From Candidatus Poribacteria bacterium (GTDB lineage: Bacteria; Poribacteria; WGA-4E; WGA-3G), in NCBI GenBank assembly GCA_028824125.1, contig JAPPES010000006.1, positions 1 through 55,828 of the forward strand: 55,828 bases of DNA, given 5' to 3'. Shown here in pieces: positions 29,850-40,457 of the stretch. A program made the position numbers and the translations under genes. Below the pieces are notes generated by a model, which was not told where the DNA came from, did not search any database, and saw only the letters and a list, made by a program, of their open reading frames with translations. Positions within the stretch are counted from its first letter, which is position 1. Every line of letters begins with the position of its first letter.

Positions 29850-32800
29850 TTATGCACGAAGAGCGTTAAATGCACCTGATGCGATAAGACTTTCAATGAC
29901 CTGTTCGTCTATCTCTGTTGAATTAAAACGATTACGGAAGTCTTGAATAGATGTGAAGGAACCGCTTTGATTTCTTTCCGCAAGGAGTAAATCTATCACT
30001 TCATCACTCACGCCTTTGAGTGCAACAAACCCGAAACGGATATCGTTCCCATCTACAGTGAAGTCTTGTTCACTCGCGTTGATATCAATCGGTAACAGAT
30101 TTATTTCCACATCCAAGAAATCAGCAAGTTTCTCACATTCAGTTTGGTAACGCTTGATTTTTTCCTTATCCGCTGACTCCCCAGTCATCATCGCCGCCAT
30201 AAATTCATGGGGATAATGTGTTTTCAGATATGCCATACGGTAGGCTAATAGAGAATAAGTGATAGAGTGCGATTTGTTGAAAGCATATCTCCCAAACTGT
30301 TCAAGAAGGTCATATACCTCCTCTGCTTCTTTAGGGGAGATTCCCTTTTCAACTGCACTATTTATGAATTTCGGGCGTTGTTTTTCAAGCACGTCTACTT
30401 TCCTTTTTCCCATTGCATCACGGAGGATATCTGCCTCACCAAGCGTGAACCCGGCAACATCGCACGCCATCTGCATCACTTGTTCTTGATAGATACAGAC
30501 ACCAAAAGTACTTTTGAGCGCATTTTCAAGTAAGGGATGGCTATATTCTATCGGTTGTACCCCGTTTTTTCGATCAATGAACTGCTGCATATCACCGTTT
30601 TCCAACGGACCCGGACGATAAAGAGCTGGAATCGCTGAAAATACTTCAAAGTTTTCCGCCTTGAGTTCGGTAACTACCTTAAACATACCGTGAGAGGTTT
30701 CGAGTTGAAATAAACCAGCAATCAATCCTTCACTGATGAGTGAATAAGTCGGTTTATCGTCAAATGGGATATCTTCAAGTGCAATCTTGCGACCATGGTT
30801 TTCCCAAATCATACTGAGGCAGTCCGCAGTCTCTGAAAGACTTCGCACACCGAGCGTATCAAATTTAATAATGCCGACATCTTCGACCGTTTTTCCTTCA
30901 AACTGTGTTGCGATTTGTCCACGTATATCCTTAAAAAGTGGGGCGTAATTGCTAAGCGGTCCCTTTGAAACCACTATTGCAGATGCATGACATGAAACAT
31001 GTCGTATCATACCTTCTACTGCTTTGCTCATTTCTATCAATTCTTTATTTTCAGGGAGTTCAGCAAGTTTCTGAAATTCTGGAATTTGCTCCAAAGCATC
31101 ATCAAGTGTAATACCCGGATAAAATGGAATAAGTTTTCCCAACTTTTGAATGTTATCAATGGGAATTTCAAGTGCGCGCCCAACATCTTTGATAGCAGTT
31201 TTTGCCCTCAACGTGGCAAAGGTAGCAACTTTACCGACAGAATCATGACCGTATTTTCTCACAAGGTAATCAATCACATCGTCACGGGCATGATCGGCGA
31301 AATCTATATCAATATCCGGAGGATTCATTCTGTCAAGGTTTAAAAACCTTTCGAACAGACATCCATAATCCATCGGATTGAAACTGATTACACCGAGAGC
31401 GTAAAGCACAAGGCTACTTGCAGCAGAACCGCGAGCAGAGAGTAAATAGTCCTGTTGGTTCGCGTAGTTGACGTAATCCGCTACAATCAGGAAATAATTT
31501 GCGTACCCAGTTTGTTGGATAATGTCCAGTTCATATTCCAATCGTTTTTGAATCGATTCGGAGAGATGTCCTCCAAATTTCTGACGCAAACCTTCGTAGC
31601 ACTGTTCTTTCAGATAACTGTCCTGTGTCCGTCCTTCGGGAATCTCAAATATCGGCATCGCATTTTTGTCGTAGTCCAGTTTCAGATTACACCGATTGGC
31701 AATTTCAACTGTATTGATAATCGCTTCAGGTGGATAATCCTTTAGTGCTTCCTGCATTTCGTCAACATTCTTAAAGTAAAAGTGATTGTTAAATCGAATC
31801 CTTTTTGGATCGTTAACAGTCTTTCTTGTTTGGATACAGAGCCGAATATCATGCATTCGGTGATCAGATTTTCGGAGGTAGTGACAATCATTTGTGCCGA
31901 CGATGGGGAGATTGTACTCATTTGCGAATTCAACCATTACCGGATATGCCGCTAACTCCTCATCAATGTAGTGGTTTTGAAGTTCGACAAAGAGATTGTC
32001 TGGTCCCATGATGTCTCTCAATTCTAACAAATTTCGGACCGCTTCATCTCTTTGATTTGAACAGATTAACTTCGGTACTATCCCATTAATGCACCCTGTC
32101 AATGCTATTATACCATCATGATATTCACGTAGCATTTCCATGTTGATGCGCGGTTTTCTATCGAAACCTTGCGTATACCCAAGTGATACTAATTCCAAAA
32201 GATTATGATAGCCTACAGCATCTTCTGCAAGCAGTGTAAGATGGGACGGTGAACATTGAGAATTATCTTCTGTTTTTGCGTTTTCTGTTTCAACATATAC
32301 CTCACATCCGACAATGGGATTAACTCCGGCTGCTTTTGCAGTGTTGTAAAATTCCCATGCACCGAACATGTTGCCGTGGTCTGTAAGTGCAACAGCAGGC
32401 GAACTGTTTTCAATTGCCCACTGCACCATATCCGGAATCCGACAAGCACCATCCAGCAGGCTATATTCACTGTGATTGTGCAGATGAACAAATTCTGAAC
32501 CGCTTGAAGGTGAAATAACACTGTCTTGTGTGGTAGTGCCGATGCCCTCGCTGGAAGTAGTCGGTCGAGTCTGATCACTTTGTGAATCAAGTCCGCTTGC
32601 TATTACAGTCACCAACACTTCATCATTCGCTTCCAACTCATCCTTGTAGACTAATCCGAAGATAGGTCGGGCATTTTCACATGTTTCGACAATTACTTTC
32701 ATGGCTTGGTCCAATTCATGCATCGTGAAATTCGGTGGAGAAGCGATATTAACAATCATCACTGCGTCTCCTGCGATGTTGTTTTCTTCAAGCAAAGGCG

Positions 32801-34178
32801 AGGTAATTGCGTTTTCTGCAGCGATCTTTGCACGATTTTCACCTTCCGCTTTTCCGATACCCATTAGGACAGTCCCTTGGTCGCGCAACGTTTCCTGTAT
32901 ATCATCAAAGTCAATGTTTATTTCGCCAGTTTTTACAAGTATTTCTGCAATTGCATTAACGCCTTGGACCAGGATTTCATCGCTTTTTTGATACGCTTCG
33001 GGCATTGATAACTCTTGGTCAACCAATTCCAGTATACGCTGATTCGGCACAACGATAACTGCATCCGACTGAGGTTGTAAACCGCCCTGCAGTTGTTGTA
33101 GTCCATATTCAGCTTTTTCAGCTCGGTGTTCGCCTTCAGAATCGAAGGGGCGTGTTACAAAGCAGACTGTTAATGCGCCGTGTTCTCGTGCAAGAGATGC
33201 AAGCACTGGAGCGACACAAGTACCCGTTCCACCGCTCATACCAGCGATAACGATAACCATCTTGGCGTCTGAGACAATAGATCGGAGCGCATCTATACTT
33301 TCCGCAGCCGCTCTTTTTCCCAGTTCCAGACTCTCCTCCGTACTTTGTCCTTGAACGGTGTTAATGCCAATTTGCACATGTGTTGCACCGTTGCATGTGT
33401 TAAGTGTGTTTATATCGGTATCAACAACACAGAATTCAATGTCTGTTGTGGCTTCTCCAAAATCAATAACACAGAATCCAATGTCTGTCGACGCCTCTTC
33501 AATCATTCGTTTTATAACATTGCAACCCGCTTCACCGACTCCAATAACTTTAAATTTGGTTCGTAAACTTTCAGATTTTTCCTGTTTCTGTGACATCGTT
33601 TTCCCCCTTGTAGGTTCTATCTCAAACTCTTGACGTAAAAGGCGTCTGATTTCACTTAGCTTCGTCTTGACTGTGCCGATTGCTAAGTCGAGTTCTTCTG
33701 CAATTTCTTTTACATTCCACAATTCGAGATAGTACAATATTGCTACAGAACGCACCCTTTGTGGAAGGTTATGCACAGCTTCCCTTGCTTCTGATAGAAG
33801 ACTTGCATCTTGAAAACGTTGCTCTGCTTCTCTATCAATCTGCAAAGCTAAATCTTCGTAACTCAGTATAATTTCACTATGCCGATGCAAGTTAGAGGCA
33901 TAGTATCTGTTGCAAGCGGTGAAAGCAATTCGCCGCAACCATCCACCAAAACTTTCTGCTTTTCGTAACCCGATTATGTTTTCCCAAACAGCCAACCAAA
34001 CATCCATTAAAATCTCTTCTGCATCCCGTCTTTGTCTTGAATTTTCAACAACGATGTTCCAAATTCGGGGACTATAACGAGATACCAATTCCGCAAAAGC
34101 TGATTCATCACGTGCTTGAACAAGCCGAACCAATTCTGCATCTGTTAGGTTGTTTGGGATGACAAAATTGTAGTGCAT
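29850..34178 (-). CDS. Sigma factor-FtsZ-like GTPase-DNA polymerase III alpha fusion
   Basis: One open frame of 1442 codons joins three modules. Residues 1-190 are an ECF sigma factor: region 2 (DESAFAELVSRYSPRIW to CNRYY) and region 4 (LPQRVRSVAILYYLELW, NVKEIAEELDLAIGTVKTKL). Residues 207-530 are an FtsZ/tubulin GTPase: GVGEAGCN, NTLNTC, the signature GMSGGTGT (313-320) and the complete C-terminal subdomain. A Ser/Thr-rich linker (531-562) leads to DnaE: PHP motif HLHNHSEYSLLDGA, catalytic Asp residues in PDIDIDF (954-960) and KFDTLG (1105-1110), ending after the helix-hairpin-helix region without the OB-fold and tau-binding end. Met195 has an AAGGGGG box and could start an FtsZ-DnaE product. 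Function of the combination is unknown. Confidence 0.88.
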   Translation of the reverse strand: MHYNFVIPNNLTDAELVRLVQARDESAFAELVSRYSPRIWNIVVENSRQRRDAEEILMDVWLAVWENIIGLRKAESFGGWLRRIAFTACNRYYASNLHRHSEIILSYEDLALQIDREAEQRFQDASLLSEAREAVHNLPQRVRSVAILYYLELWNVKEIAEELDLAIGTVKTKLSEIRRLLRQEFEIEPTRGKTMSQKQEKSESLRTKFKVIGVGEAGCNVIKRMIEEASTDIGFCVIDFGEATTDIEFCVVDTDINTLNTCNGATHVQIGINTVQGQSTEESLELGKRAAAESIDALRSIVSDAKMVIVIAGMSGGTGTCVAPVLASLAREHGALTVCFVTRPFDSEGEHRAEKAEYGLQQLQGGLQPQSDAVIVVPNQRILELVDQELSMPEAYQKSDEILVQGVNAIAEILVKTGEINIDFDDIQETLRDQGTVLMGIGKAEGENRAKIAAENAITSPLLEENNIAGDAVMIVNIASPPNFTMHELDQAMKVIVETCENARPIFGLVYKDELEANDEVLVTVIASGLDSQSDQTRPTTSSEGIGTTTQDSVISPSSGSEFVHLHNHSEYSLLDGACRIPDMVQWAIENSSPAVALTDHGNMFGAWEFYNTAKAAGVNPIVGCEVYVETENAKTEDNSQCSPSHLTLLAEDAVGYHNLLELVSLGYTQGFDRKPRINMEMLREYHDGIIALTGCINGIVPKLICSNQRDEAVRNLLELRDIMGPDNLFVELQNHYIDEELAAYPVMVEFANEYNLPIVGTNDCHYLRKSDHRMHDIRLCIQTRKTVNDPKRIRFNNHFYFKNVDEMQEALKDYPPEAIINTVEIANRCNLKLDYDKNAMPIFEIPEGRTQDSYLKEQCYEGLRQKFGGHLSESIQKRLEYELDIIQQTGYANYFLIVADYVNYANQQDYLLSARGSAASSLVLYALGVISFNPMDYGCLFERFLNLDRMNPPDIDIDFADHARDDVIDYLVRKYGHDSVGKVATFATLRAKTAIKDVGRALEIPIDNIQKLGKLIPFYPGITLDDALEQIPEFQKLAELPENKELIEMSKAVEGMIRHVSCHASAIVVSKGPLSNYAPLFKDIRGQIATQFEGKTVEDVGIIKFDTLGVRSLSETADCLSMIWENHGRKIALEDIPFDDKPTYSLISEGLIAGLFQLETSHGMFKVVTELKAENFEVFSAIPALYRPGPLENGDMQQFIDRKNGVQPIEYSHPLLENALKSTFGVCIYQEQVMQMACDVAGFTLGEADILRDAMGKRKVDVLEKQRPKFINSAVEKGISPKEAEEVYDLLEQFGRYAFNKSHSITYSLLAYRMAYLKTHYPHEFMAAMMTGESADKEKIKRYQTECEKLADFLDVEINLLPIDINASEQDFTVDGNDIRFGFVALKGVSDEVIDLLLAERNQSGSFTSIQDFRNRFNSTEIDEQVIESLIASGAFNALRA
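33420..33497. repeat. 42-bp tandem duplication in the FtsZ module
   Basis: TCAACAACACAGAATTCAAT (from 33421) recurs as TCAATAACACAGAATCCAAT (from 33463), period 42. It encodes TTDIEFCVVDTDIN and STDIGFCVIDFGEA, a doubling of the strand and loop before the nucleotide-binding T2 region. Confidence 0.9.
33594..33610 (-). promoter_or_regulatory. Internal ribosome site and ATG before the FtsZ module
   Basis: On the minus strand AAGGGGGAAAACG leads to ATG at 33596, which is codon 195 of the fusion. It could give independent translation of the FtsZ-DnaE part. Confidence 0.5.
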
Positions 34179-34308
34179 AAGTAGATTCCCAAATAGATTT
34201 GCTTATAAAGAGGGGGAATTTTTGAGAAACGGTTTAAAAAATATAGAAAAATCGTAGTTGAGGTATTTATTATCGCAATGAGTAGTTTTAGACTTGCAAA
34301 AGTCATTT

Positions 34309-35581: not shown

Positions 35582-36688
35582 TCATTTTCGCGATGCCATA
35601 TCAAAACCAACGGCTGCAATCAGTACAACACCTTTGATGACATCCTGCCACGCAATGTCCATGTTTGCCAATTCCATTCCACTGCTAAGGCTTGCCATCA
35701 CGAACGCACCTAAGATGGCACCAAAAATAGTGCCGCGTCCGCCCATTAAGCTGGCACCACCGATCACACAAGCAGCTATTGCTTCTAACTCAAGCAGACC
35801 GCCCGCTTTTGAAGTAGCACTCCCCGCGCGTGCTGTCATAACAATACCTGCTATCGCCATTAATGCCCCCATTATTGCAAATACCCGTAATGTGATGCTC
35901 CGCACGTTAATCCCGGAGAGATAGGCTGCTTCGGCATTGCCACCGACAGCGTAAACATATCTTCCGAAACGGGTGCGGTTTGCGATGAAGTGAAACACAA
36001 ATACCAATCCAAATAAAATGCATGCTGAAAAGGGAATTCCTTTGTAATTATTCATCACAGCAACAAAGGCAATAATACAACCCCACGTGCCAACAATTTT
36101 TAAAATTGTGGGTAGATATGCTCTTTCAGTGCGCGTCGCCTGTGAAGTTGAGAGTTGTCGAAAAAATACATATCCACTTACCCCAAGTCCAATTAACATT
36201 ATAGTCCATCCAATAGCACGTGGAAGGTAGGCGTTGCCAATAGCTTTTAGCCAATTATCGTGCAAAAGGATCGTTTTACCTTTTGTAAATGCTAACATCA
36301 GTCCTCGAAATACCAAAAATCCGCCAAGTGTGACGATAAACGCTGGGATGTGCTGATATGCTACGAGGTAACCTTGCATCAAGCCTATCAGAATTCCGAG
36401 GCAGATTACAATGAATAGTGTTAAGATTATTGGTTGTCCCAATTGAACATGCAGGATTGCAGTGATAGCACCAAGCAAACCAGCACCAAAACCGACAGAT
36501 AGGTCAATGTTAGCAGAGACGATGACAAACGTCATCCCGATTGCAAGAATGGCTGTTACTGTTGCGCGGCGGGAGAGATTGGAAAGGTTTCGTGAGCTAA
36601 GGAAGGTGCCTTCTAACAGTGAAAATATGATCCAGATACAGACAAGAGCAATTACCATCACATACGTGCGAAGATTCAGATGCTTCAT
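35582..36688 (-). CDS. Sugar ABC transporter permease (XylH/RbsC type)
   Basis: The 368-residue protein has about ten membrane helices and the family blocks SANIDLSVGFGAGLLGAI, HIPAFIVTLGGFLVFRGLML, RFGRYVYAVGGNAEAAYLSGI and GGASLMGGRGTIFGAILGA. The extra mid-protein segment and length fit the xylose-permease-like subgroup. Neither an ATPase nor a binding-protein gene is adjacent: upstream are TatD and SDR genes on the same strand with 20-bp spacings. The remaining transporter parts must lie elsewhere. Confidence 0.9.
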   Translation of the reverse strand: MKHLNLRTYVMVIALVCIWIIFSLLEGTFLSSRNLSNLSRRATVTAILAIGMTFVIVSANIDLSVGFGAGLLGAITAILHVQLGQPIILTLFIVICLGILIGLMQGYLVAYQHIPAFIVTLGGFLVFRGLMLAFTKGKTILLHDNWLKAIGNAYLPRAIGWTIMLIGLGVSGYVFFRQLSTSQATRTERAYLPTILKIVGTWGCIIAFVAVMNNYKGIPFSACILFGLVFVFHFIANRTRFGRYVYAVGGNAEAAYLSGINVRSITLRVFAIMGALMAIAGIVMTARAGSATSKAGGLLELEAIAACVIGGASLMGGRGTIFGAILGAFVMASLSSGMELANMDIAWQDVIKGVVLIAAVGFDMASRK

Positions 36689-36708: not shown

Positions 36709-37473
36709 CTAATGAGTTTTGAATAGCGAATTGAAATTTTTTGTTGTGATTTCACCAATTGTCCCTACGGAAGTCTCGCGAAGTTCTGCGATTTTTTCTG
36801 CCACAGCACGTACATACGCTGGCTCATTCCGTTTACCGCGCCAAGATTGCGGTGCCAACCACGGACAATCGGTTTCTATCAATAATCGTTCTAACGGTAC
36901 TTCCCTTGCCACGGCTTGCACATCTTTAGCATTTGGGTATGTCACTATACCACCGATACCGATATGGAATCCGATTTCAATACTCCTATGCATCAATTCA
37001 ACATCACCAGTGAAGCAGTGTAGGACACCTTGGATTTGTCCACGTCGTGCCTCTAAGATGGGAAGGATGTCCATATACGCGTCGCGGTTATGGACAATTA
37101 TCGGCATTCCCATCTCTTCGGCAAGGTCTAATTGTTTTTCAAACGCATCTTTTTGCACAGCATGTGGTGAGAGGTTTCGATAGTAATCCAATCCTATTTC
37201 ACCGAGGGCAATTACCTTCGGATGATTTAAAAGCTCACGAAAAGTTTTTAGCACATCGGGGGTTAAGTCTTTTGCATCGTGCGGATGCATGCCTACCGTA
37301 GCAAATAGATTTTCATGTTTCTCTGCAAGCTCAACCGCACCGAGACTGGTTTCTAAATCAAATCCGATAACAAGGATAGTTGAGACTCCAGCTTCTAATG
37401 CACGTTTTAGGACAGCATCTCGATCAGGATCAAATTGTGAGATCTGAATATGTGTGTGTGAATCGATAAACAT
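36709..37473 (-). CDS. tatD: TatD family metal-dependent hydrolase
   Basis: The 254-residue TIM-barrel protein has all TatD metal-site motifs in order: FIDSHTHIQ (HxH), GEIGLDYYR (Glu), IIVHNRDAY (His), VLHCFTG (His) and LLIETDCPWLAP (Asp). Family members are Mg-dependent 3'-5' DNA exonucleases or other phosphoesterases. It starts 21 bp after the SDR gene stop and ends 20 bp before the permease start. Confidence 0.92.
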   Translation of the reverse strand: MFIDSHTHIQISQFDPDRDAVLKRALEAGVSTILVIGFDLETSLGAVELAEKHENLFATVGMHPHDAKDLTPDVLKTFRELLNHPKVIALGEIGLDYYRNLSPHAVQKDAFEKQLDLAEEMGMPIIVHNRDAYMDILPILEARRGQIQGVLHCFTGDVELMHRSIEIGFHIGIGGIVTYPNAKDVQAVAREVPLERLLIETDCPWLAPQSWRGKRNEPAYVRAVAEKIAELRETSVGTIGEITTKNFNSLFKTH

Positions 37474-38647: not shown

Positions 38648-39733
38648 TTACGATATTTGATATTGCTTCAATTTTTCTTTATCAAACAAAATGCCGTGCC
38701 CCGGACGATCAGGTGGAGAAAAATGCCCACCTTTGAGTGTCAAGGTATCGCTCAGCACCGGATCAAGCGATGGAATATACTCTACGAAGAGTGAATGCGG
38801 CACTGCAGCAGAGAGATGAACGTGCAAATCCATCAGAAAGTGGGGCGAGACAGAAAGACCGAAACATTCAGCGGTATGTGCCACCTTCATCCATTCAGAA
38901 ATACCACCTACTCTAACTGCATCGGGTTGTAAGATGTCAGCTGCACCTTGTGCAATGTATTCCTTAAACACAAATTTATTGTAGATCGTTTCACCGATTG
39001 CGATTGGAATGGTAGTTTTTTCTCGGAGTGCAACGTGGCTTTCAACATCATCCGCCTCAATCGGTTCTTCAAACCAGAAAAGGTCTGCTGCTTCCACACG
39101 GCAAGCAAGTTGAATAGCCTCTCGCGCGTTCCATTTCATATTTGCATCAATCATGAGATAAGGTTCTTGTCCAATTGCTTTTCTGACAGCAAATATCCGC
39201 GCTATGTCTTCGTGTAGACTGTCGCGTCCTACCTTGATTTTTATCCCTTTAAAACCTTGCTCCACAAATTCTGCGGATTGTCTCACAAGTTCGTCTTCTG
39301 ACAGGTGTAGCCAACCACCATCAGTGTTATACACAGGAACAGCAGCTCTTGCACCACCGAGTAGTTGATAGAGGGGTAATTCGGCACGTTTTGCCATAAG
39401 GTCCCACAGCGCGATATCCACAGCCGCCATTCCCAATCCGACAATTCCACCTCTACCGACCCAGTGCGTCTCCATCCACATCCGATTCCAGATACGGTCA
39501 ATATTGGCAGCATCTTCTTCAAGAAGGATAGGCGTGAGATAGGCATCTATAATCTGTTTAATCGCTTCACCACCTTTGCCGATAGTATAAGAAAAACCGG
39601 TGCCTATCACACCATCTGAATCTTCAATTTCGATGAACGGAAATTCCATAGAGACAAATGCCTGAATGGCATCGGTGCGTTCGACTTGTGGTGGAATGTC
39701 GTAAAGCGAGGTGCGAACTGCTTTAATTTTCAT
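38648..39733 (-). CDS. Enolase-superfamily acid-sugar dehydratase-like protein
   Basis: This mandelate racemase/muconate lactonizing family protein of 361 residues shows the Lys in GIKIKVG, three metal ligands (Asp of LMIDANMKWN, Glu of FEEPIEADD, Glu of IAIGETIYN), the DAVRVGGISE Asp and the SPHFLMDLHVHL His. That His/Lys arrangement suits sugar-acid dehydratases or racemases. It overlaps the upstream Uma2 gene by 11 bp (AAATATGAAAATTAA), so translation may be coupled. Substrate cannot be assigned. Confidence 0.9.
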   Translation of the reverse strand: MKIKAVRTSLYDIPPQVERTDAIQAFVSMEFPFIEIEDSDGVIGTGFSYTIGKGGEAIKQIIDAYLTPILLEEDAANIDRIWNRMWMETHWVGRGGIVGLGMAAVDIALWDLMAKRAELPLYQLLGGARAAVPVYNTDGGWLHLSEDELVRQSAEFVEQGFKGIKIKVGRDSLHEDIARIFAVRKAIGQEPYLMIDANMKWNAREAIQLACRVEAADLFWFEEPIEADDVESHVALREKTTIPIAIGETIYNKFVFKEYIAQGAADILQPDAVRVGGISEWMKVAHTAECFGLSVSPHFLMDLHVHLSAAVPHSLFVEYIPSLDPVLSDTLTLKGGHFSPPDRPGHGILFDKEKLKQYQIS

Positions 39734-40457
39734 ATTTCTGCTGTTCCTCTTTCAACCGCTCTATTTCAGCTCGGAGGCGTGCGACTTCTGCTTCAGCTCG
39801 CTGCCTTGCTTGTGCTTCTTGCTGCCTTGCTTGTGCTTCTTGCTGTGCTTTCTCAGCAGGTGTTTGCAGCCACTGTTCTGAAGTCGGAACGTAAAGCCCC
39901 ACATCATCACCTTGAATGCTAAACTCTATTCCCAGCACAGCAGAGAGTATCCCGTTATCTTGCGAAGATGGAATTGCATCATATTTTCCATCTTCATTTA
40001 GCCGAAAACCGATCAATGAATCAGATAAATAAGATCGCTCCGGATCGTAGAGAAAATATTCCCGAACACCGATGTGAGCATATCGGGTTTTCTTCTTTCT
40101 CAGATCATTTTTATAGGTGCTTCTGCTGGTAACCTCCATTACGAAGTCCGGTGCTTTCCCTTCCTCCCAAATTTTATAGGTGCGGCGCCTCTTTTTTTCT
40201 ATGCCGAACACAACCATCACATCAGGCGAAATGGAACGCCGCGTTTTACCGGGCACATCATAAATTAGCAGGTTTCCAGAAACATATACATCGTCTCTAT
40301 CTTCATAGTATGCTTCAAGTTTCTGATAGGTGTTGACAATTACGATGCGATGTAGGTCTGTTTCCGCAAGCGGTTTTCCATCAGATTCGGGGTAATAAAT
40401 ACCTTCGTCATCTGTTGGGGCATATTGAATGGGTTTTGTGGATTTATCGGATGCCAT
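39723..40457 (-). CDS. Uma2 family endonuclease-like protein
   Basis: A 244-residue protein with Uma2 landmarks YVSGNLLIYDVPG, ISPDVMVVFGIEKK, PDFVMEVTSRST and KKTRYAHIGVREYFLYDP. The C-terminus is a long coiled coil (AEKAQQEAQARQQEAQARQRAEAEVARLRAE) encoded partly by 21-bp tandem repeats. TAGGAG precedes the start. It is similar in layout to the gene at 1874-2605, including the heptad-repeat tail. Confidence 0.87.
   Translation of the reverse strand: MASDKSTKPIQYAPTDDEGIYYPESDGKPLAETDLHRIVIVNTYQKLEAYYEDRDDVYVSGNLLIYDVPGKTRRSISPDVMVVFGIEKKRRRTYKIWEEGKAPDFVMEVTSRSTYKNDLRKKKTRYAHIGVREYFLYDPERSYLSDSLIGFRLNEDGKYDAIPSSQDNGILSAVLGIEFSIQGDDVGLYVPTSEQWLQTPAEKAQQEAQARQQEAQARQRAEAEVARLRAEIERLKEEQQKYEN
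39801..39842. repeat. 21-bp tandem repeat in Uma2 gene
   Basis: CTGCCTTGCTTGTGCTTCTT occurs twice in tandem with 21-bp period, encoding heptads of the coiled-coil tail. Confidence 0.85.

What the first reader, a model, noticed from the sequence alone, without database searches (positions are those of the whole stretch)
29850..34178. One frame joins ECF sigma factor, FtsZ-like GTPase and DNA polymerase III alpha
The frame is open for 1442 codons with all hallmark motifs of three normally unrelated machines: sigma regions 2 and 4, the complete FtsZ GTPase signature GMSGGTGT with its C-terminal subdomain, and DnaE PHP and catalytic Asp motifs. I know of no family with this architecture. It could couple transcription, polymer formation and DNA synthesis, or be a read-through concatenation.
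Basis: partly seen in the sequence, partly recalled or inferred. Interest (0 to 1): 0.95.

Follow-up and report, generated by a model that had tools for sequence, protein, structure and literature searches.

The report
Sigma factor–FtsZ–DNA polymerase fusion protein
In Poribacteria, a group known from marine sponges, one gene joins a transcription initiation (sigma) factor, a copy of the cell-division protein FtsZ and a shortened copy of the replication polymerase DnaE; the same gene sits in many related species, and its division and polymerase parts likely act as the sigma factor's built-in sensor of division and replication.

Summary
The minus-strand ORF 29850-34178 (1442 aa) joins an ECF sigma factor, FtsZ and a DnaE that stops after its HhH motif; the genome also has separate dnaE and ftsZ genes. 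Of 58 family genomes, 29 carry the triple fusion in one frame, two of them single-contig; 12 keep only ECF-FtsZ, and 7 of 10 such tails tested retain a worn DnaE start. All three parts are under purifying selection; PHP and polymerase residues are nearly always kept, FtsZ motifs mostly. The FtsZ part lacks the C-terminal anchoring peptide. A promoter-like motif precedes 40 of 41 orthologs; in ten genomes 24 of 25 exact copies lie before this gene or sibling ECF fusions, so the sigma factor probably drives its own gene. At the ECF|FtsZ junction 39 of 39 orthologs keep a start codon behind a purine-rich stretch, so FtsZ-DnaE is likely also made alone. Siblings carry half an FtsZ, DnaN, DnaE, PurC or WD40 repeats. 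Best reading (inferred): an autoregulated ECF factor whose C-terminal regulatory domain is a captured FtsZ-DnaE. Rivals: a sigma-driven division/replication brake, or co-expression without protein coupling. The literature listings seen show no description of it.

The parts
29850..34178 (-). whole ORF, 1442 aa: ECF sigma - FtsZ - truncated DnaE
34206..34238 (-). predicted ECF-type autoregulatory promoter TTTAAACC-N18-CTCTTTA, upstream of the start codon
   Evidence: function inferred
33894..34088 (-). sigma-70 region 2 (residues 31-95)
   Evidence: PF04542
33636..33788 (-). sigma-70 region 4 (residues 131-181)
   Evidence: PF08281
33603..33609 (-). AAGGGGG, ribosome-binding-site-like, at the ECF|FtsZ junction
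   Evidence: use inferred
33594..33596 (-). conserved internal start codon (Met195): ATG in 37 and GTG in 2 of 39 orthologs
   Evidence: use inferred
33021..33551 (-). FtsZ GTPase subdomain (residues 210-386)
32586..32876 (-). FtsZ C-terminal subdomain (residues 435-531); no C-terminal tail follows
31971..32486 (-). DnaE PHP domain (residues 565-736), nine metal-ligand positions kept
30849..31619 (-). DnaE polymerase core with PDIDIDF and KFD motifs (residues 854-1110)
30342..30824 (-). DnaE finger domain (residues 1119-1279)
29859..30104 (-). helix-hairpin-helix (residues 1359-1440), last element before the stop
35582..36688 (-). upstream neighbour: ABC permease (BPD_transp_2), in front of the fusion gene in 18 of 19 loci compared
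36709..37473 (-). upstream neighbour: TatD-type DNase, in 18 of 19 loci compared

Best explanation
The gene joins an ECF sigma factor to an FtsZ that keeps its GTP-signature and T7 motifs and to a shortened DnaE, and the sigma factor likely switches on its own gene while the FtsZ-DnaE part would act as its built-in regulatory domain. Shown: the architecture; its conservation at one chromosomal locus; purifying selection on all three parts; retained PHP and polymerase residues; loss of the FtsZ anchoring peptide and of the DnaE tail; the shared upstream motif; the conserved start codon behind a purine-rich stretch at the ECF|FtsZ junction. Inferred: (1) the upstream motif is the promoter read by this sigma group, giving positive autoregulation; (2) FtsZ-DnaE still assembles with, or binds the same ligands as, the cell's own FtsZ and primer-template DNA but cannot be anchored to the membrane or join the polymerase III holoenzyme; (3) its bound or unbound state controls whether the attached sigma domain can reach RNA polymerase, as C-terminal extensions do in ECF41 and are proposed to do in ECF42 and ECF57; (4) the internal start supplies free FtsZ-DnaE that tunes the same equilibrium. 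Sibling genes with half an FtsZ, DnaN or DnaE in the same position would be further inputs to the same promoter.
For: Domains. One frame in 29 of 58 family genomes; 72 of 120 protein clusters returned by a capped search, the window's own included, carry sigma, FtsZ and DnaE domains together. Triple and double fusions lie behind the same permease in 18 of 19 stretches compared. Selection over 7 ortholog pairs: omega ECF 0.04-0.13, FtsZ 0.13-0.37, DnaE 0.09-0.18; canonical dnaE in 4 pairs 0.07-0.09. Nine PHP ligand positions kept in 29 of 30 triple fusions, the Asp motif PDIDID in 28 of 30. Upstream motif in 40 of 41 locus orthologs, 8 of 8 half-FtsZ siblings and 14 of 17 other siblings; spacer 18 bases in 60 of 64 matches. 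Exact copies: 4 in the own genome, before this gene and three siblings, and 21 in 8 of 9 relatives with 0 for the reversed control, 20 before ECF fusions and 1 before a transposase-like frame. Constant sigma module, changing partner: DnaN, DnaE, PurC, half FtsZ, WD40. No anti-sigma domain among the 12 neighbouring frames scanned. Precedent: ECF41 has a fused regulatory domain and few targets (PMC3426412, abstract and outline; PMC8999054, passages).
Against: DnaE is constrained almost as strongly as the canonical enzyme, more than a mere docking part needs. DnaE has been lost repeatedly (12 of 58 genomes have ECF-FtsZ only; the double-fusion label needs 5 changes on the FtsZ tree, at least 3 forced by well-supported branches), so it is not essential to the sigma function; 2 of 30 triples have lost one catalytic Asp. 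FtsZ is not fully canonical: the third Gly of the first nucleotide loop is Asp, Asn or Glu in 23 of 29 triples, this one included, and the T7 Asn is replaced in 4 of 30, so GTP turnover is uncertain. ECF-PurC (G070, apparently its only purC) does not fit a replication/division sensor. The predicted regulon holds only the fusion genes themselves, which suits the partner as effector as well. With one mismatch the motif is no commoner in the own genome than its reversed control (6 and 6). No expression, binding or activity data exist here; the arrangement of sigma against FtsZ in the model was not assessed (pLDDT 69).
Confidence: 0.42

Rival explanations
1. Self-amplifying brake: the sigma factor turns on its own gene under a particular condition and the product, or the free FtsZ-DnaE from the internal start, acts as a defective subunit that stalls division and replication. 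FtsZ without its anchoring peptide, half FtsZ, T7-degraded FtsZ and DnaE without clamp and tau contacts would all be of that type.
For: Conserved FtsZ C-terminal peptide in 21 of 21 canonical but 0 of 39 fused proteins (residues 500-640 searched); T7 Asp lost in 6 of 12 DnaE-less fusions; altered first nucleotide loop in 23 of 29 triples; half-FtsZ siblings; DnaE tail missing; predicted targets are only the fusion genes; internal start.
Against: PHP and polymerase residues of DnaE and the T7 Asp of FtsZ are kept in nearly all triple fusions; a pure poison need not keep them. ECF-PurC does not fit.
Confidence: 0.25
2. Co-expression without protein-level coupling: genes lying behind the sigma gene were joined to it by loss of stop codons, and each partner is made mainly from its own internal start under the sigma factor's promoter.
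For: Start codon kept at the ECF|FtsZ junction in 39 of 39 orthologs, AGG in 37 of 45 junction Arg codons against 8% elsewhere, Met to Val only as GTG; DnaN fusions have a strong site before DnaN's own Met; in G073 the frame runs on into further coding sequence.
Against: In-frame joining is kept across two genera although a stop codon at the junction would be neutral under this reading; the ECF domain is the most constrained part; the window's FtsZ-DnaE linker has no ATG, GTG or TTG codon, so those two at least are one product.
Confidence: 0.2
3. Bait: the fused FtsZ, DnaE or DnaN copy senses inhibitors or toxins aimed at the real protein and releases the sigma factor to mount a defence.
For: DnaE is a known antibiotic target (nargenicin and DnaE1, PMC8922275, abstract in the listing); FtsZ and DnaN likewise (recalled).
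Against: In the ten genomes searched no exact copy of the motif lies before any gene other than ECF fusions, save one before a transposase-like frame; no other common antibiotic target was seen among the 120 listed of 170 ECF fusions; PurC is not a typical target.
Confidence: 0.08
4. Assembly artefact or decaying pseudogene.
For: Two genomes (G062, G067) show the gene split by a frameshift; two lineages lost one catalytic Asp.
Against: 29 single-frame orthologs, two of them in single-contig genomes; omega far below 1 in the ECF, FtsZ and DnaE parts.
Confidence: 0.02

Closest known systems
ECF sigma factors with a C-terminal regulatory extension (ECF41; also ECF42 with TPR and ECF57 with WD40-like repeats)
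   Same: sigma2-sigma4 module, large C-terminal domain, no anti-sigma gene found beside it, conserved upstream motif, few predicted targets; the WD40 siblings resemble ECF57
   Different: the extension is FtsZ plus a polymerase core instead of SnoaL, TPR or WD40; a start codon with a purine-rich stretch is conserved at the junction; the group number of this ECF was not assigned here
FtsZ
   Different: no C-terminal anchoring peptide, altered first nucleotide loop, fused at both ends, a second copy beside canonical ftsZ
DnaE (DNA polymerase III alpha)
   Same: PHP with nine ligand positions, palm, fingers, HhH; scores above the PRK05673 cut-off
   Different: stops before the region that carries the clamp site, OB fold and tau-binding domain (recalled); a second copy beside canonical dnaE; trimmed further or lost in relatives
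Sibling ECF-DnaN, ECF-DnaE and ECF-half-FtsZ proteins of Poribacteria (database names include DNA polymerase III subunit beta, DNA polymerase III subunit alpha, cell division protein FtsZ, sigma-70 family sigma factor)
   Same: same ECF subgroup and, where examined, mostly the same upstream motif
   Different: other partner; in the listings I saw, not described as sigma fusions

Membership tests
ECF sigma factor | sigma region 2 and region 4 in one short module, about 190 aa | tested here: met
   PF04542, PF08281 above cut-off; TIGR02937 65.5 bits against cut-off 42.9
ECF sigma factor | conserved promoter-like motif upstream of its own gene | tested here: met
   TTAAACC, 17-19 bases, CTC in 40 of 41 locus orthologs; exact form 21 against 0 for the control in nine relatives; transcription not measured
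ECF sigma factor | binds RNA polymerase and directs transcription | not testable with these tools
   needs in vitro or reporter assay
ECF with C-terminal regulatory extension (ECF41-like behaviour) | large C-terminal domain beyond sigma4 | tested here: met
ECF with C-terminal regulatory extension (ECF41-like behaviour) | no anti-sigma factor gene next to it | tested here: met
   12 neighbouring frames scanned against Pfam, none with an anti-sigma domain; three short ones had no match at all
ECF with C-terminal regulatory extension (ECF41-like behaviour) | extension controls sigma activity | not testable with these tools
   inference only
ECF41 proper | SnoaL-like extension | tested here: not met
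   no SnoaL match at E up to 1
FtsZ (cell division equivalog) | score above the TIGR00065 cut-off | tested here: not met
   270.3 bits against 295.2
FtsZ (cell division equivalog) | GTP signature and T7 catalytic loop | tested here: met
   GMSGGTGT and NIDFDD in the window; GM[GS]GGTGT in 30 of 30 and T7 Asp in 29 of 30 triples; but first nucleotide loop altered in 23 of 29
FtsZ (cell division equivalog) | C-terminal conserved peptide | tested here: not met
   0 of 39 fused, 21 of 21 canonical
DnaE replicase | PHP, palm with three Asp, fingers, HhH | tested here: met
   PRK05673 1042 bits against cut-off 1002
DnaE replicase | C-terminal region of the family profile (clamp, OB and tau contacts, recalled) | tested here: not met
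   match ends at 884 of 1146 profile positions; no tail in the downstream frames

The most novel reading that the evidence does not exclude
Poribacteria have turned copies of their own replication and division machines (FtsZ, DnaE, DnaN) into sensor-effector domains of a self-activating sigma factor family, so that the state of the Z-ring and replication fork is read directly by RNA polymerase, with a nested internal gene supplying the sensor alone.
Probability: 0.3. Interest if true: 0.95.

Novelty: new variant of a known kind. Interest (0 to 1): 0.85.

Why it matters
I recall no described protein that joins a transcription factor to both a division GTPase and a replicative polymerase. Here such proteins form a conserved family, so a direct physical link between gene expression and the division/replication apparatus becomes testable. 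It also warns that some database entries name these proteins plainly DNA polymerase III alpha, beta or FtsZ, and it offers an example of in-frame fusion that keeps the downstream gene's own start signal.

Tried and rejected
Artefact or missed stop: rejected. Lost dnaE tail in another frame downstream: none seen. Only copy of dnaE or ftsZ in the genome: rejected, separate copies exist. A first promoter pattern with a wrong spacer found nothing; comparing the upstream sequences showed the 18-base spacer. With one mismatch allowed the corrected pattern gave 6 hits in the own genome and its reversed control also 6, so only exact matches are used (21 against 0). Bait/antibiotic-sensor idea: looked at only through partners and motif sites, no support. 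Full-length structure not attempted (limit 1200 aa); the sigma half of the model has low to middling confidence and the structure searches listed only FtsZ, so the sigma fold rests on sequence profiles. The ECF reclassification paper is not held, so the ECF group was not assigned. Literature searches (listings; the long ones show only their top rows) showed no paper on this fusion; most subscription journals are not in that library. The metaproteome paper PMC6081418 (passages) reports only six poribacterial proteins, all with putative oxidoreductase activity, so it gives no expression evidence. The internal-start scan of the genome's other ECF fusions takes the best of several codons and some rows are anchored on a second, wrong match, so it is only a lead.
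Full report
WHAT IS THERE. The ORF runs from 34178 down to 29850 on the minus strand, 1442 codons, without a stop. Pfam and NCBIfam place an ECF sigma factor at about residues 10-186, FtsZ at 196-542 and DnaE at 561-1440. The DnaE part matches E. coli DnaE chains up to residue 891 and ends there; none of the three downstream frames continues it. The genome (G000, 5.59 Mb, 162 contigs, 94% complete) carries a separate dnaE in a 1196-aa frame and a separate ftsZ in a 452-aa frame, plus 70 other ECF matches, 41 of them in frames of 800 codons or more (counted). Relatives that carry the same gene are named Candidatus Poribacteria.

IS IT REAL. Over 58 genomes of the family: 29 have the triple fusion in one open frame, 2 have it split by a frameshift (G062, G067), 2 have pieces cut by contig ends (G010, G025), 12 have ECF-FtsZ without DnaE, and 13 have neither (several of those genomes are incomplete). 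Two single-contig genomes, G079 and G080, are among the carriers. In the protein collection, 72 of the 120 clusters returned, the window's own included, hold sigma, FtsZ and DnaE domains together (only part of the candidates was scored). In 18 of 19 stretches compared the gene lies behind the same permease and TatD genes, triple and double fusions alike; in the exception, G004, only the downstream neighbour is shared with the window. So the locus is old and vertically kept.

HOW IT EVOLVED. In the DnaE tree (quick method, 63 rows) the 31 fused sequences and one ECF-DnaE protein of G011 form one side of a well-supported branch against the canonical enzymes; the G011 row is long and its place unsure, and canonical enzymes of other families fall on the canonical side, so the age of the duplication is open. 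In the FtsZ tree the fused copies of both genera lie apart from the canonical and half-FtsZ clades (branch 98/91), and the double-fusion label needs 5 changes, at least 3 forced by starred branches. Seven of ten double-fusion tails tested (of 12) align with the start of the PHP domain better than all of 300 shuffles; two were borderline (6 and 7 of 300) and one showed nothing. The seven belong to the window's genus and are related to each other. The simplest reading is one ancient triple fusion with repeated loss of DnaE. Where DnaE is kept it ends after or just before HhH.

CONTROL SIGNALS. Upstream of 40 of 41 locus orthologs lies TTAAACC, 17-19 bases, CTC. The exception, in G070, sits directly behind an ECF-PurC gene that has the motif. 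It is also found at 8 of 8 half-FtsZ siblings and 14 of 17 other sibling genes; the spacer is 18 in 60 of 64 matches. Of ten own-genome upstreams in that scan only two had it, but that set mixes in another ECF group and wrongly anchored rows. The exact pattern TTTAAACC-N18-CTCTWTA occurs four times in the own genome, before this gene and before three siblings (compared), and 21 times in eight of nine relatives with none for the reversed control; G019, which has no member of this ECF subgroup at the threshold used, has none. Twenty of the 21 precede ECF fusions (two of them the same gene in G023); one precedes a transposase-like frame (identification recalled). With one mismatch allowed, hits and control are equal in the own genome (6 and 6). 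At the ECF|FtsZ junction 37 orthologs have ATG and two have GTG behind a purine-rich stretch, weak in G033 and G034. The mean pairing energy is -8.5 over 38 rows (one anchored on the wrong codon) against -2.2 kcal/mol for 1128 other internal ATGs, and the junction is the best ATG of its gene in 29 of 38; Arg is AGG in 37 of 45 junction codons against 8% elsewhere. The sequences are related, so these counts are not independent, but 27 distinct junction sequences were seen among 39, and a Met-to-Val change that keeps a start codon is hard to explain by protein selection. One database protein (P0075, 1230 aa) begins at exactly this point. There is no ATG, GTG or TTG codon in the FtsZ-DnaE linker of the window.

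SIBLINGS. The same ECF subgroup is joined to half an FtsZ (about 410 aa), to DnaN (37 of the 120 clusters listed of 170; in G023 at the very locus of our gene), to DnaE without FtsZ, to PurC and to WD40 repeats. The eight genomes examined with a DnaN fusion, one of them internally deleted, also have separate DnaN genes. In G070 the fused purC is the only one found (84% complete genome).

WORKING MODEL. The constant part is the sigma module and its motif; the changing part is the partner. That is the pattern of ECF factors with C-terminal regulatory extensions. In ECF41 the extension is fused, the promoter motif is conserved and targets are few (PMC3426412, abstract and outline); ECF42 and ECF57 are proposed to be switched by protein contacts of TPR or WD40 extensions (PMC8999054, passages). 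I therefore think it most likely that FtsZ-DnaE is the regulatory part of an autoregulated sigma factor and reports on division and replication, with free FtsZ-DnaE from the internal start as a second product. Steps 1-4 of the statement are inferred. The strongest rival is that the partner is the effector: a copy without anchoring or holoenzyme contacts, made in bursts by a self-activating sigma factor, would act as a brake. The third is simple co-expression. The data do not separate these three cleanly.

NOVELTY. No paper in the listings named under Tried and rejected describes it. I rate it a new variant of a known kind (ECF with fused regulatory domain) because that is the behaviour I infer; the domain combination itself is, as far as I know, without precedent.

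Noticed in passing
L225:1504-3243 (G023): At the syntenic locus of our gene this genome has an ECF sigma factor fused to a complete DnaN (beta clamp), with two copies of the upstream motif in front.
   Followed up: partly
L230:2857-4347 and 1022-2683 (G070): Tandem ECF-PurC and ECF-FtsZ; the fused purC seems to be the only copy in that 84% complete genome. Only the first gene has the promoter motif.
   Followed up: partly
L213 (G073): The fusion frame runs on into further coding sequence, giving a 1758-codon frame; a database cluster of similar length (P0050, 1743 aa) exists.
   Followed up: no
L150-L167 (own genome): A second, larger group of ECF fusions also has AAGGAGG-like start signals just after the sigma domain; 26 of 37 scanned rows had a site of -8 kcal/mol or better, but the best of several codons was taken and some rows were wrongly anchored.
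   Followed up: partly
window 33420-33502: A 42-base tandem duplication lengthens the FtsZ part by about 14 residues in this species and G004; the model has low confidence there.
   Followed up: partly
L025 (G002): A tandem duplication of about 37 residues lies in the finger region of its fused DnaE.
   Followed up: no
G000 against G004: Synonymous divergence is 0.39 in the DnaE part but about 0.10 in the ECF and FtsZ parts of the same gene, which hints at recombination inside the fusion gene.
   Followed up: no
L139, L142, L147: ECF-half-FtsZ siblings stop after the GTPase subdomain and lie some 40-66 kb from canonical ftsZ in at least seven genomes; without the T7 face they could, by inference, only cap one end of an FtsZ filament.
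   Followed up: partly
L272 (G080): An orphan copy of the promoter motif is followed by a transposase-like frame, perhaps a disrupted sibling gene.
   Followed up: no
window 39723-40457: A Uma2-type putative nuclease gene lies in the upstream gene row; related frames appear in only some of the compared loci.
   Followed up: no
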